Shown here: positions 40 to 3,422 of the stretch, piece after piece
Layout of the letters: the number at the start of each line of letters is the position of its first letter
Position numbering within the stretch: position 1 is the stretch's first letter
Origin: Celeribacter baekdonensis
Lineage (GTDB): Bacteria; Pseudomonadota; Alphaproteobacteria; Rhodobacterales; Rhodobacteraceae
Reading direction: 5' to 3'
DNA length: 64,000 nucleotides
NCBI RefSeq assembly: GCF_900102315.1
Contig: NZ_FNBL01000001.1
Location: 509,841 to 573,840, forward strand
Translations under genes and position numbers: made by a program
The notes under the pieces: model-generated
The model's input: only the letters and a program-made list of their open reading frames with translations
Told to the model about the DNA's origin: nothing
Databases searched by the model: none

Positions 40-145
40 GTGCGTCTCCCTTTTGCGACTGTTCTACCCGGTTGTGGGCGACCCGCCAATGGGCTGCGCG
101 CGCATGTCGCAAGCGGATGCAATGAGACCTGCGACCAAAGCACAA

Positions 146-170
146 GAAAAAAGGGCCAAAGCGGCCCCTT
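146..170 (-). terminator. Rho-independent terminator after the lysis module
   Basis: On the minus strand AAGGGGCC and GGCCCTT pair around a GCTTT loop, followed by a run of T. It lies just past the last gene of the endolysin/holin group and before ccmF, so it separates the two transcripts. Confidence 0.65.
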
Positions 171-199
171 TTCCCGTCTCACCCCACTCCCCCTTGTCG

Positions 200-622
200 C
201 TAAAGCAACAAAAGGGCCCCAAGAGAGACAAGCATTGCGCCAAACACCGGCCAAAGAAAGGCCACACCGTGCAAGCCAAAGGAGCCTTGGATCACCGAAA
301 AGTGAAGCACCGCCCCCGAGATCAGCAGCGAGAGGAACAAAAACAGCGCCGCCGCTTCGGCGCCCCAAGCCGGATTCCCGGCAATCTGCATCAGCCACCA
401 CCACCCGATGGTCAATCCAGACCCCGCCCAAGACAGCGACATGCCAAGCGCCAAAGGGGTTGCGCGCACCACCCAGAGCCACAAAAACGTCACCGAGATC
501 ATCAACGCCATCAAGGCGATGGCCCCGTAAGCGATCAACACCGCCTGATCATATCCGACGGTCTGCACCGCCAAAAGCGCCGCCACGACAACCGCCGCGT
601 AAAGAATTGCTACCTGTTTCAT
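200..622 (-). CDS. Small polytopic membrane protein of the lysis module
   Basis: This 140-residue protein is almost entirely hydrophobic, with four probable membrane helices and Trp/Gly-rich turns (for example GWWWLMQ). No catalytic motif is visible and I do not recognise a named family. Its ATG overlaps the stop of the preceding 45-codon gene (ATGA), so it is translationally coupled to the endolysin/holin group and is the last gene before a terminator. A role in membrane disruption, holin control or release of particles is an inference from position only. The reading frame is long, in operon register and antisense frames look unnatural, so I take it as a real gene. Confidence 0.65.
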   Translation of the reverse strand: MKQVAILYAAVVVAALLAVQTVGYDQAVLIAYGAIALMALMISVTFLWLWVVRATPLALGMSLSWAGSGLTIGWWWLMQIAGNPAWGAEAAALFLFLSLLISGAVLHFSVIQGSFGLHGVAFLWPVFGAMLVSLGALLLL

Positions 623-756
623 TGTTCAAGCATCTCCTTGACGACAGCGTCCAATGCGGCGGCTGCCTCTCGGTTTTGGCGCAGGGCCGTGGCGAGCGCT
701 TCGCCCCACCAGAGTCCGCGAAGTTTGGTCCAAATCTTGCGAAAAGGATGTGTCAT
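619..756 (-). CDS. 45-residue basic/amphipathic protein of the lysis module
   Basis: The frame starts MTHPFRKIWTKLRG and ends with an acidic helical tail (KEMLEQ). A tryptophan- and lysine-rich start followed by an Ala/Glu-rich helix suggests a peripheral membrane or helix-forming peptide. Its stop overlaps the start of the downstream membrane protein by ATGA, and its start is only 4 bases after the stop of the upstream small gene. This tight packing is the main evidence that it is translated. Function is unknown; a holin accessory or antiholin role is possible by context. Confidence 0.55.
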   Translation of the reverse strand: MTHPFRKIWTKLRGLWWGEALATALRQNREAAAALDAVVKEMLEQ

Positions 757-760
757 CACG

Positions 761-937
761 TCATCCCCTCGGCAGCCGTTCGCGGATCATCGTGGTCATT
801 TCCACCAGAATCTGCGTGTTTTTATTCAGCACATCGCGAGTCGCCTGATCTTTTTGCGCATCGCGGTAGAGCAGGAAAAACACCATCAACACCCAAGGCC
901 CGTGCTCAGAGACAGCGGCAATCAATGCGTCACTCAT
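761..937 (-). CDS. 58-residue single-helix membrane protein, possible second holin or spanin-like partner
   Basis: The start at MSDALIAA was chosen because it is preceded by GGAAAGGGGGG and overlaps the 3' end of the holin gene by 8 bases; longer starts would extend into the holin frame with an arginine-rich, unnatural sequence. The protein has one N-terminal membrane helix (GPWVLMVFFLLY) and then a charged, probably coiled tail with alternating hydrophobics. Small single-helix proteins in endolysin/holin operons often act as extra holins or regulators. The function here is inferred from neighbours only. Confidence 0.6.
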   Translation of the reverse strand: MSDALIAAVSEHGPWVLMVFFLLYRDAQKDQATRDVLNKNTQILVEMTTMIRERLPRG

Positions 938-1526
938 CCCGCCCCCCTTTCCAGGCCTCAAGAGCGGGATTCTCCGCCGTCGCCCCCGGCACATAGACCG
1001 GCTTGGCCTCCCAAGAGGGCGCTGATGCCACAGGCGGAACACCCTGCCCCTGCGCCCCCGCCTCAAGCGCTTTGAGCGCCGCGATATTGGCCGTCACAAT
1101 CGGCGCTTGCGCCACGGTGGCGGCGACAGAGCGTTGAAACTCTTGCGATTTCACCTGATAGCGCGCACCAAAGTAAAACGACACGATCGTGCCCAACAGC
1201 CACCAAAGCGGCTCCGGGATCAGCGCGACCCCCTGCATCCTTGAGGCAAACCAAAGCGGATCGACCATGGCCGAGACGCACAATCCGATGGTGCCAAAGG
1301 CCATCAATGGTCGCGGCACGCGGTTGAGCGCATCCATCAGCCGATCAAACGCGCCTTTGCGTTCGACCGCAAATTCGGCGGCGAATTGTTGCATCGCGGA
1401 GCTGCGGTAATTGGCCTCGCGCACAGCTCCTGCCTCTTTGTTCTCGAAAAACACTTCGGCCGTGTCTTTGACCAGATTGCGCCCGTCGCCAAAGATCGCA
1501 TCAAACAACTTGCCGATTATCCCCAT
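930..1526 (-). CDS. Holin of the 3-TM superfamily (GTA-type lysis gene)
   Basis: The 198-residue product has a charged N-terminal part, a central pair or trio of membrane helices (about residues 70-130, including WWLLGTIVSFYFGARY) and a Pro/Ala-rich cytoplasmic tail. This layout matches the 3-TM holin family that is paired with GH108 endolysins in Rhodobacterales. Its start overlaps the endolysin 3' end by 10 bases. Holins form membrane lesions that let the endolysin reach peptidoglycan. In Rhodobacter capsulatus the equivalent pair (rcc00555/rcc00556) lyses cells to release gene transfer agent particles; the same role here is inference, since no GTA head or tail genes are in the window. Confidence 0.8.
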   Translation of the reverse strand: MGIIGKLFDAIFGDGRNLVKDTAEVFFENKEAGAVREANYRSSAMQQFAAEFAVERKGAFDRLMDALNRVPRPLMAFGTIGLCVSAMVDPLWFASRMQGVALIPEPLWWLLGTIVSFYFGARYQVKSQEFQRSVAATVAQAPIVTANIAALKALEAGAQGQGVPPVASAPSWEAKPVYVPGATAENPALEAWKGGRDE

Positions 1527-2128
1527 GACGCCACCCGCGCTGCATGCTCAGAATCTGTCAGGTGATAGCGTGGGGAAATGAAGTCCTCGGCCCGGATGAT
1601 CCAACCGCCTTTGCCGCCCTTGCGTGTGCGCGCGTATTTGCGTGAGGTCGGGCGGCGATCTGCCAGAGCGTAATAGTAATTGCGCCGGGCAATGCCGTAA
1701 GCGTCGGCCAAGTGATGCGGGGCCAAAGATTGCGCAATATGCGCGGCCTCGATGGTCTGTGGCCCAATCGCCCCATCCACCGCAATCCTCTGCCCCATAT
1801 CGGTCAAAAGCCGCTGCAAAATCCGCACGGCAGTGCCGCCCGAGTTGACATACATGTCGAACACGCTGGCTTGCAAAACCGGGGGCAATTCGTCGATGCG
1901 GGGGCGGTGAAAGTAATGTTCGACAAAAATGTCGCGCGCCTGAACCCGCGTCAGCTTGCGCAGGTCGGATGTCGTCACCCGCCCGTCGCCATCCACATCG
2001 ACGCCCAGCGTGCGCATCGTGCCGATGGTGACGCCATATTTGGTTGCCCCGCCCGGATCGTCGGGGTCATTGACGTATCCGCCCTCACGGGCAATGATCT
2101 CGTCTGCGATCTGTTGTACTGTTTTCAT
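1517..2128 (-). CDS. GH108 endolysin (N-acetylmuramidase), holin-associated
   Basis: The ATG giving MKTVQQIADEII was preferred over an upstream TTG because TTGAGG lies 4-9 bases before it. The 203-residue product carries the GH108 signature REGGYVND with catalytic Glu near residue 15, followed by DPGGATKYGVT, and a C-terminal peptidoglycan-binding segment. It cleaves the glycan backbone of murein. No signal peptide is seen, so it needs the adjacent holin to cross the inner membrane. It is first in a five-gene operon. The gene corresponds to the endolysin used by Rhodobacterales gene transfer agents for release. Confidence 0.88.
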   Translation of the reverse strand: MKTVQQIADEIIAREGGYVNDPDDPGGATKYGVTIGTMRTLGVDVDGDGRVTTSDLRKLTRVQARDIFVEHYFHRPRIDELPPVLQASVFDMYVNSGGTAVRILQRLLTDMGQRIAVDGAIGPQTIEAAHIAQSLAPHHLADAYGIARRNYYYALADRRPTSRKYARTRKGGKGGWIIRAEDFISPRYHLTDSEHAARVASWG

Positions 2129-2271
2129 ATGCCTCAATCCCACCAATTGATGGGATCAAGGTTGCGCAAAAAGGTTAACGCCCGTGGACCTGAGCGCGCG
2201 TGTCAAAATTTACCACATTATTACAATATCTTGTGAAGAATATCCGGCCCCTTATCCGGAATGAAAGAAAT

Positions 2272-2913
2272 CTAGCCGCCCCCTTGGCGCTCATCCTGTT
2301 TCACCTCGAATTGCTTCCAAACATGCATTCGCCCTTTTTGGCGCGCATCGGCGAGCCAGAGCTTTTTGCGTATATCTGGGACTTCCATAGACTGATAGAG
2401 ACCGCCAGAAAACTTGGGCCAATCAATCGCAAGGCCTTGCTTGACCATTTCCGCAGATAAGTCGCGCCCATCCGGCAAATAACACCGCGCAACGGTGCGA
2501 CCATGGCTATCCACATCAGTCACCTCGGCACGAATAGATTGCCCTTTGCAAAGACGGACCAATGCCCATTTCGCCTTTTTCCCATAGGGGTGGTTCATCT
2601 CCGGCGCATCGACACCGAAGAGACGTATTTGGGTTTTCTGGATCACAATCGTGTCGCCATCAACGACATAGGCACTCCCCCGCAGAACAGGTTTTTCCAG
2701 TGCCTCTCGTGAGGCCTTTTCGTTGAATGCGTTGGCGGGAGAAACAGGTTTGCTTCGATTAGGTGGAGTAGATGGTTTCAACGCGTGACGTGCGGCGCGT
2801 CTCACCTCTTTCTTCGCATGACGCATAAATGCAGCGCCCGCTATAAGAGCGATAATAAAAAGTAACTCAGCCAAATACCAACCCTCCCAAAAACAAAGAG
2901 GATTAGAGTTCAC
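2272..2913 (-). CDS. Membrane-anchored thermonuclease-like (SNase) protein
   Basis: The 213-residue protein has an N-terminal membrane helix (about residues 12-30), a basic linker, and an SNase domain from about residue 78. The staphylococcal-nuclease catalytic set is visible: VVDGDT, Arg97 in IRLFG, Glu105 in DAPE and Arg139 in GRT, so it is probably active as a calcium-dependent phosphodiesterase facing the periplasm. It sits between ccmE and the endolysin. Base composition is clearly more AT-rich than the neighbours, which suggests recent acquisition. It could degrade extracellular DNA or DNA liberated by lysis, but nothing in the sequence decides the substrate. Confidence 0.82.
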   Translation of the reverse strand: MNSNPLCFWEGWYLAELLFIIALIAGAAFMRHAKKEVRRAARHALKPSTPPNRSKPVSPANAFNEKASREALEKPVLRGSAYVVDGDTIVIQKTQIRLFGVDAPEMNHPYGKKAKWALVRLCKGQSIRAEVTDVDSHGRTVARCYLPDGRDLSAEMVKQGLAIDWPKFSGGLYQSMEVPDIRKKLWLADARQKGRMHVWKQFEVKQDERQGGG

Positions 2914-2969: not shown

Positions 2970-3422
2970 TTAGCTTTCCGGCTCTTTATAGAGTCCCTGT
3001 TCCTTGAGGGCGTCCACAACCTCTTTCGGCATATAAGACTCATCGTGTTTGGCTAGGATCTCGGTCGCCACAAACACCCCGTTTTGCAGGCTGCCGGTGC
3101 CGATCATGCCCTGATTTTCATCAAACAAATCCGGCAAAACACCCTCAAAGCGCACCGGGATCGTTTCATTGGTGTCGGTCACACTAAAGGTCACATGGGT
3201 GCCCTCACCGCGCACCAAACTGCCCTCTTCGACCAACCCGCCGATGCGGAAAACCTCGCCTGCGCGCGGCGGTTCTTCGACCACTTGCGTGGGCGAGCGA
3301 AACAGGTTGATGCCATCGCGAAAGGCATAGCCGATCAGCGACACCGCCACCACAAGGGCCACGGCCGCAATCGCAATCACTTGAATGCGACGGGTCTTTT
3401 TCAGGGTCTTCAAACCGGCCAT
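2970..3422 (-). CDS. ccmE: Cytochrome c-type biogenesis heme chaperone CcmE
   Basis: The 150-residue protein has one N-terminal membrane helix (about residues 13-34) and a periplasmic OB-fold domain. The covalent heme-binding motif HDESY is present, with His126 as heme ligand and Tyr130. CcmE carries heme from CcmABCD to the CcmF/H lyase during cytochrome c maturation. An AGGAGG site precedes the ATG. ccmF begins 2.9 kb downstream on the same strand, with unrelated genes inserted between. Length and motifs are normal for the family. Confidence 0.95.
   Translation of the reverse strand: MAGLKTLKKTRRIQVIAIAAVALVVAVSLIGYAFRDGINLFRSPTQVVEEPPRAGEVFRIGGLVEEGSLVRGEGTHVTFSVTDTNETIPVRFEGVLPDLFDENQGMIGTGSLQNGVFVATEILAKHDESYMPKEVVDALKEQGLYKEPES

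What the first reader, a model, noticed from the sequence alone, without database searches (positions are those of the whole stretch)
200..2128. GTA-type endolysin/holin module inserted between ccmE and ccmF
A GH108 endolysin, a 3-TM holin and three tightly packed small genes (two overlaps and a coupled ATGA) lie between ccmE and ccmF. In Rhodobacter capsulatus the matching pair rcc00555/rcc00556 lyses cells for gene transfer agent release. The three unnamed small proteins (58, 45 and 140 residues) may be holin accessories or antiholins not yet described.
Basis: partly seen in the sequence, partly recalled or inferred. Interest (0 to 1): 0.72.

Follow-up and report, generated by a model that had tools for sequence, protein, structure and literature searches.

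The report
RNA lock on GTA lysis genes
A bacterium keeps the self-destruct genes of its domesticated virus right behind ordinary household genes, and a conserved foldable stretch of RNA in front of the lethal enzyme probably stops it from being made by accident; three small companion genes are real and mostly undescribed.

Summary
A GTA head-tail cluster is on the same contig. 'Inserted' misleads: ccmE directly precedes the endolysin in 65 of 79 loci. s58 and s45 occur in the same 20 of 80 loci, s140 in 15 of them. s58 resembles BhlA/UviB holins below Pfam's cut-off; antiholin roles are untested.

The new part lies just upstream. A rigid promoter motif (CGNRCGST-N14-TTAACC-N9-cAgccT) overlaps a hairpin that pairs the endolysin Shine-Dalgarno. 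Arms differ between genera yet stay matched. RNA starting at the predicted start site loses at least half of the lock pairs in 97 of 106 loci; starting 10 nt upstream, in 6. This is the architecture of phage T4 gene e: read-through RNA from argC-ccmE would be locked, dedicated late RNA free. In this genome ghsAB (head spikes) has a near-match of the motif and a strong hairpin; elsewhere ghsA mostly has neither. No start site is mapped; R. capsulatus could not be checked. New variant of a known kind.

The parts
2970..3422 (-). ccmE, haem chaperone; co-directional housekeeping gene upstream (argC lies before it, 4491-3463)
   Evidence: NF009731 213 bits, cut-off 152; PF03100
2272..2913 (-). SNase-domain protein with N-terminal hydrophobic segment; a relative is found in 2 of the 80 other loci (L005, L006)
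   Evidence: PF00565 E 4.8e-15; tblastn
2193..2200 (-). promoter box 1, CGCGCGCT (consensus CGNRCGST)
   Evidence: columns over 55 loci; hold-out genomes; coordinates read
2173..2178 (-). TTAACC, CtrA half-site-like box
2158..2163 (-). predicted -10 element AACCTT (consensus cAgccT)
   Evidence: A+16 51/55, T+20 51/55; hold-out 40/49 and 42/49
2151..2151 (-). predicted transcription start (TTAA +27); inferred, not mapped
   Evidence: from the -10 geometry; consequences tested
2132..2161 (-). 13-bp hairpin (arms 2161-2149 and 2144-2132, loop 2148-2145) that pairs the endolysin Shine-Dalgarno; predicted to form in read-through RNA only
   Evidence: -19.1 kcal/mol, z -4.06 (2161-2123); RNA from the predicted start -3.5 kcal/mol; family-wide:
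1517..2128 (-). GTA endolysin, GH108 N-acetylmuramidase with PG_binding_3 domain
   Evidence: NF040573 360.5 bits; PF05838, PF09374
930..1526 (-). GTA holin, PF11351
   Evidence: 94.8 bits, cut-off 24.8
761..937 (-). s58: hydrophobic N-terminal helix plus charged helix, BhlA/UviB-like
619..756 (-). s45: short protein with a conserved C-terminal helix-like motif, no family
200..622 (-). s140: hydrophobic five-helix protein, no family
145..175 (-). terminator-like hairpin with T-run, behind s140 and before ccmF

Best explanation
This is the lysis operon of an RcGTA-type gene transfer agent (shown by family membership and by the GTA cluster in the genome). It is transcribed from its own late promoter, of the class that R. 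capsulatus drives with CtrA-P and GafA (motif shown, regulators inferred), and ends at a terminator before ccmF (predicted). Because it sits behind the co-directional housekeeping genes argC-ccmE, read-through RNA would carry the endolysin gene into cells that make no GTA (inferred). A hairpin around the endolysin start would hide its Shine-Dalgarno in such RNA (folding computed). The promoter's -10 and predicted start lie inside the 5' arm, so RNA made on GTA command lacks most of that arm and can be translated (inferred from geometry). The endolysin then passes the membrane with the help of the PF11351 holin (known for R. capsulatus from papers). s58, probably a second BhlA-like holin or a holin partner, together with s45 and s140, tunes this step in about a tenth of the genera (inference).
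For: Identity. Motif: A+16 and T+20 each in 51 of 55 loci; hold-out genomes: TTAA[CG] in place in 49 of 56 (2.8 in shuffles), at least four of six key bases in 46 of 56 (shuffles 0.2), all six in 35 of 56 (shuffles 0). One of 18 one-mismatch hits in the own genome is the promoter of ghsA/ghsB (PDB chains Rcc01079 E 4.5e-7, Rcc01080 E 2.5e-9); by z the lysis and ghsA sites have the two strongest hairpins of the 19 hits. Hairpin: mean z -2.21 (n=80) against 0.12, 0.05, -0.23 and -0.77 at ccmE, argC, holin and ccmF starts. Arm swap: own 3' arm in the best 5% in 49 of 135 loci (6.8 expected; hold-out alone 17 of 56, 2.8 expected); ccmE 3/67, argC 3/59, holin 7/63, ccmF 6/53. Start-site test, 107 loci: Shine-Dalgarno region unpaired 0.24 in long RNA, 0.26 if RNA starts 10 nt before the predicted start, 0.48 at it; half or more of the lock pairs lost in 97 of 106 loci at the predicted start, 6 of 106 at -10. 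The 5' arm moves with the promoter: r 0.71 (106 loci), 0.53 (46 hold-out). Only 2 of 136 loci have a T-run after the stem.
Against: No start site is mapped and the -10 is a weak match to TATAAT; the base at +27 is A or G in only 58 of 107. 29 of 136 loci lack the motif at the score used. Hold-out hairpins are weaker (median z -1.28, 22 of 56 below -2; control window 4 of 56). In 52 of 107 loci the Shine-Dalgarno gains no more than 0.2 on truncation, and in nine of 106 most lock pairs survive. The 14 of 79 loci without ccmE directly upstream still have a mean z of -1.80, though L026 and L050 have none. Controls are not all flat: holin and ccmF starts show a slight arm-swap excess (p 0.04 and 0.05), and truncation raises the controls too, by 0.04-0.09. 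ghsA leaders elsewhere mostly lack motif and hairpin: 3 of 30 below z -2, own genome included. The one-mismatch pattern has fewer hits in the own genome (19) than its reversed control (51). Six other head-tail promoters did not show the arrangement seen in the own genome. R. capsulatus was not found. In the window GAGG lies only 3 nt from ATG.
Confidence: 0.6

Rival explanations
1. The hairpin is in all endolysin mRNA and is a regulated translational switch (opened by a protein, small RNA, temperature or ion), not an anti-read-through lock.
For: A stem into -20..-1 is seen in 136 of 136 loci, and in 108 of 122 loci with an SD-like 4-mer that 4-mer is paired. If TTAACC itself were the -10 element, RNA would start before the hairpin.
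Against: A+16 and T+20 have the spacing of A-11 and T-7 of a -10 element at fixed distance; the lock pairs vanish just at the start predicted from it; loop and arm letters are poorly conserved in the promoter-anchored columns; no Rfam match at the hairpin.
Confidence: 0.22
2. The hairpin is an intrinsic terminator of the argC-ccmE operon.
For: It lies behind ccmE and would also insulate the lysis genes.
Against: At least 5 T in the 8 nt after the stem in only 2 of 136 loci; the terminator scan of the window did not list it; the stem runs up to the start codon.
Confidence: 0.08
3. The palindrome is a DNA operator, or a by-product of a G-rich Shine-Dalgarno next to C-rich promoter sequence.
For: Positions +24 to +26 are C in 73-76 of 107 loci, complementary to G-rich Shine-Dalgarno sequences.
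Against: Own arms fit better than foreign arms from the same promoter class (49 of 135 in the best 5%). Two ghsA leaders with the promoter motif do not fold (L297 z -0.1, L299 z 1.1).
Confidence: 0.1
4. s58, s45 and s140 do not serve lysis (for example a cytochrome c maturation or stress membrane module that happens to sit there).
For: G048 keeps s58-s45-s140 between ccmE and ccmF although endolysin and holin are gone from the locus and no NF040573 is found in that genome.
Against: In 28 of 30 loci with s58 endolysin and holin lie upstream of it (of the other two, L105 is cut by a contig end with part of a holin). s140 occurred in no genome without s58 (24 of 295), s45 in one, as a weak hit (28 of 29 in genomes with s58). 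G048 still has GTA_TIM genes and the promoter motif.
Confidence: 0.2

Closest known systems
R. capsulatus RcGTA lysis genes rcc00555/rcc00556
   Same: Endolysin of the GTA equivalog family, holin of the GTA Pfam family, locus apart from the head-tail cluster; a TTAACC near rcc00555 (the EMSA primer printed in PMC6854486 holds GGTTAACG, passage seen). CtrA half-sites are reported there (PMC9638019, passage) and GafA binds the lysis promoter (PMC6363796, passage).
   Different: Whether rcc00555 has the hairpin or the small genes was not testable here; the passages seen do not mention them.
Phage T4 gene e (lysozyme) leader
   Same: Shine-Dalgarno hidden in a helix in long early RNA; the late promoter lies in the 5' strand of the helix, so late RNA is free (PMC3014915, passages).
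   Different: Unrelated sequence; here the long RNA would come from host housekeeping genes and the late promoter is CtrA/GafA-like. In T4 the structure and its effect were measured; here they are predicted.
Bacillus phage SPbeta endolysin-BhlA-BhlB genes (yomC-yomB-yomA)
   Same: Endolysin next to a BhlA-type small protein and another holin; s58 shares the QGPF/HGPW and LLF/LLY segment. The names BhlA/BhlB/BlyA for these genes are recalled.
   Different: Profile match weak (hhalign probability 23%, E 0.0009, 23 columns); below the Pfam cut-off; partner genes differ.
Caulobacter GTA lysis system LypABC
   Same: Controls lysis for GTA release (PMC13236601, passages).
   Different: The paper found no holin-endolysin there; another mechanism.

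Membership tests
RcGTA-type lysis cassette | endolysin of family NF040573 over its cut-off | tested here: met
   360.5 bits, cut-off 240
RcGTA-type lysis cassette | adjacent PF11351 GTA holin | tested here: met
   94.8 bits, cut-off 24.8
RcGTA-type lysis cassette | GTA head-tail cluster in the same genome | tested here: met
   capsid Rcc01687 E 6.3e-183; terminase, portal, tail and GTA_TIM/Rcc01698 genes
RcGTA-type lysis cassette | control by CtrA and GafA | tested here: inconclusive
   TTAACC box; near-match of the motif at ghsAB; binding not tested
RcGTA-type lysis cassette | needed for particle release | not testable with these tools
   needs a knock-out
T4 gene e-type lock | Shine-Dalgarno paired in the long transcript | tested here: met
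   computed folding only
T4 gene e-type lock | dedicated promoter lies in the 5' strand of the helix | tested here: met
   by motif prediction
T4 gene e-type lock | dedicated RNA starts inside the helix and is translated, long RNA is not | not testable with these tools
   no 5'-end or translation data at hand
BhlA/UviB holin (PF10960) | score over the Pfam gathering cut-off | tested here: not met
   window protein 13.9 bits, cut-off 22.6; 16 of 20 members match at E<=1, best 0.00095
BhlA/UviB holin (PF10960) | hydrophobic N-terminal helix followed by a charged helix; gene beside endolysin and holin | tested here: met
   model H2-12, H15-54, pLDDT 92; loci
Antiholin | binds and delays the holin | not testable with these tools
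   no sequence family defines it here
Intrinsic terminator (hairpin 2161-2132) | T-run after the stem | tested here: not met
   2 of 136 loci; not listed for the window

The most novel reading that the evidence does not exclude
Across Rhodobacteraceae the suicidal GTA lysis gene is kept safe behind housekeeping genes by an RNA lock laid over its own promoter: only RNA born at the GTA-late promoter escapes the lock. It is a family-wide counterpart, with matched changes in both arms, of the T4 lysozyme leader in a domesticated element; the head-spike operon of this genome has one too; and in about a tenth of the genera it is joined by an undescribed three-gene module (s58-s45-s140) that acts with the holin.
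Probability: 0.55. Interest if true: 0.75.

Novelty: new variant of a known kind. Interest (0 to 1): 0.62.

Why it matters
GTA producers kill themselves, yet the killing gene sits behind argC-ccmE, which should be expressed in growing cells. How leaky expression is avoided has been treated as a matter of transcription alone (CtrA, GafA). A lock nested in the promoter would add a second, RNA-level safety catch, predict where the endolysin RNA begins, and give a sequence signature (promoter motif plus matched hairpin) for finding working GTA lysis loci. It would also be an independent instance of the T4 gene e solution. The nested occurrence of s58, s45 and s140 gives concrete new candidates for lysis timing in GTAs. 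Each claim can be tested with a reporter or a deletion in harmless laboratory Rhodobacteraceae.

Tried and rejected
Small ORFs as chance ORFs: rejected. s45 as a soluble copy of the s58 helix: no support (hhalign probability 0.4%). s58 relatives in phages or viral contigs: two matches at E 4 in 50,697 phage records; none confirmed in viral contigs (43 pattern matches). Fold of s140: no PDB or BFVD match at E<=0.001; best BFVD hit F8TV82 E 0.025. Hairpin as terminator: rejected for 134 of 136 loci. The lock as a general feature of GTA-late genes: not supported outside the lysis gene and the own ghsA. A -10 hexamer shared with the head-tail promoter: TTGACG-N17-CAGCCT is in the own genome, but not found in the six other head-tail regions in which g1 or g2 could be placed (ten fetched for this, four not placed). 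R. capsulatus: not among 32 genomes of one genus (exact 20-mer) nor among 394 of the family (up to 1 mismatch). s58 on the ArgC tree of 60 rows (19 with s58): 7 changes, shuffles 16.2 on average, so clustered but patchy. Literature: searches listed no paper that by title or abstract start describes a hairpin or lock at a GTA lysis gene; 'gene transfer agent' with 'hairpin' and 'shine-dalgarno' gave two unrelated papers. Only open-licence papers are held, and only passages were read.
Full report
What is there. The genes run on the minus strand: argC, ccmE, an SNase-domain gene, the endolysin, the holin, s58, s45, s140, a terminator-like hairpin, then ccmF. The endolysin scores 360.5 bits against NF040573 'holin-associated N-acetylmuramidase' (cut-off 240) and the holin 94.8 bits against PF11351 'Holin of 3TMs, for gene-transfer release' (cut-off 24.8).

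The genome has a GTA. The window lies at bases 509,841-573,840 of a contig that holds, about 110 kb away, a head-tail cluster: large terminase, portal, connector, tail tube, DUF2460, baseplate hub, NlpC/P60 and the GTA_TIM/Rcc01698 protein, with a capsid that matches Rcc01687 at E 6.3e-183. NF040573 is found in 260 of 295 genomes of the family, 249 over the cut-off, and once in this genome.

The place is shared, not newly inserted. Among 80 named loci (159 confirmed, the best 80 kept), ccmE lies directly upstream in 65 of the 79 that could be scored, argC upstream within 3 kb in 58 of 80, and ccmF downstream on the same strand in 54 of 80. On an ArgC tree the window falls among Celeribacter.

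The three small genes. Iterated profile searches of the downstream ORFs found s58 in 20 of 80 loci, s45 in the same 20 and s140 in 15 of these; in four loci the order is s58-s140-s45. Genome-wide, s58 is in 31 of 295 genomes and s140 in 24 of 295, all with s58. s45 is in 29 of 265; 28 of these have s58, and the odd one, G221, is a weak hit (E 8e-4) on another contig than its endolysin. Thirty of the 31 s58 places were fetched: endolysin and holin are upstream in 28, one is cut by a contig end, and one, G048, has lost both but keeps s58-s45-s140, the promoter motif and GTA_TIM genes. dN/dS is low. s58 is modelled as a short and a long helix (pLDDT 92). 16 of 20 members resemble PF10960 Holin_BhlA at E<=1 (best 0.00095), the window protein at 13.9 bits under the cut-off of 22.6; the profile match to SPbeta-type BhlA is short and weak. 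s140 is modelled with five helices (pLDDT 89) and matches no family or fold securely. I read s58 as a likely second holin or holin partner; s45 and s140 are open.

The promoter. Upstream of the endolysin, TTAA[CG] at -60..-42 was used as anchor in 55 of 80 leaders (window and 79 loci). The flanks then show fixed columns: C-22 G-21. R-19 C-18 G-17 S T, TTAACC, and A+16 and T+20 in 51 of 55 each. A+16 and T+20 have the spacing of A-11 and T-7 of a -10 element, which puts the start at about +27. Hold-out: of 60 further genomes 4 near-copies were dropped; of the 56 left, 49 have TTAA[CG] in place, and of these 49 the six key bases are right in 40 (A+16), 42 (T+20), 43, 46, 47 and 46. The best-scoring TTAA was taken per leader; with the same rule dinucleotide shuffles gave 2.8 in place and 0.2 with four or more key bases, against 49 and 46 of 56. 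In the own genome a short form of the motif hits exactly once, here (by construction, since the window was in the set). The count of one-mismatch hits is no evidence (19 in all, reversed control 51), but one of them stands directly before two genes that match the RcGTA head-spike proteins Rcc01079 and Rcc01080. CtrA half-sites at the lysis, head-spike and tail-fibre promoters and GafA binding at the lysis promoter are reported for R. capsulatus (PMC9638019 and PMC6363796, passages).

The hairpin. In the window, 2161-2132 folds into a 13-bp stem that pairs GAGG before the ATG (-19.1 kcal/mol, z -4.06). Over 80 leaders the mean z is -2.21, 47 of 80 below -2; at the starts of ccmE, argC, holin and ccmF it is 0.12, 0.05, -0.23 and -0.77. 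The region -14..-5 is unpaired at 0.25 against 0.48, 0.46, 0.35 and 0.44. Hold-out: mean -1.88, median -1.28, 22 of 56 below -2, control window 4 of 56. Arm letters differ between genera, so I tested matching without an alignment: each 5' arm binds its own 3' arm better than foreign ones (best 5% in 49 of 135; 6.8 expected; hold-out alone 17 of 56), with nothing at ccmE (3/67) or argC (3/59) and little at holin (7/63) or ccmF (6/53). No Rfam family lies there.

How the two fit. In the window the predicted start, 2151, leaves only 3 of the 13 bases of the 5' arm in the RNA, whose fold drops to -3.5 kcal/mol. Over 107 leaders with the motif (of 136), the Shine-Dalgarno region is unpaired at 0.24 in long RNA, 0.26 when RNA starts 10 nt before the predicted start, 0.48 at it; it gains more than 0.2 in 55 of 107, while equal truncation raises the control genes by 0.04-0.09. 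Half or more of the lock pairs vanish in 97 of 106 loci at the predicted start, 24 at -5 and 6 at -10. The 5' arm shifts with the promoter (r 0.71; hold-out 0.53), the 3' arm also, less (0.54). This is the layout described for T4 gene e, where long early RNA is locked and late RNA begins inside the helix (PMC3014915, passages).

What speaks against it. No start is mapped; 29 of 136 leaders lack the motif; some hairpins are weak or absent (L026, L050); loci without ccmE directly upstream have hairpins too, so the danger guarded against may be read-through from any neighbour. The own ghsA leader has motif and a strong hairpin over its GTG start (z -5.4 to -7.3), but of 30 ghsA leaders only 3 fall below z -2, one of them with a doubtful start, and only 4 have a motif score of at least 5. 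R. capsulatus could not be read.

Verdict. The finding is a real, largely known kind of locus: the GTA lysis cassette. Beyond it I report two things not found in the papers searched: a promoter-nested RNA lock at the endolysin start, well supported as a structure and inferred as a mechanism, and a nested set of three accessory genes of unknown action.

Noticed in passing
window 2272-2913 (-): SNase-domain gene between ccmE and the endolysin; a relative at this place in L005 and L006 only, of 80 loci.
   Followed up: partly
L216 / L283 (own genome, C25 near 87893-88234): Head-spike genes ghsA/ghsB behind a near-match of the lysis promoter motif, with a strong hairpin over the GTG start.
   Followed up: partly
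L101 (G048) 1200-1520: Endolysin and holin missing between ccmE and ccmF while s58-s45-s140 and the late promoter motif remain; no NF040573 in that genome, two GTA_TIM matches.
   Followed up: partly
L010: Celeribacter neptunius: lysis genes before ccmF, but ccmE lies about 6 kb downstream on the other strand; the hairpin is kept.
   Followed up: no
Paracoccus loci, e.g. L045, L063, L066: Upstream of the endolysin two TTAAC boxes 11 bases apart (TTAA-N7-TTAA), which looks like a full CtrA site; the site's form is recalled.
   Followed up: no
L028, L018, L022, L081: Order s58-s140-s45 instead of s58-s45-s140.
   Followed up: no
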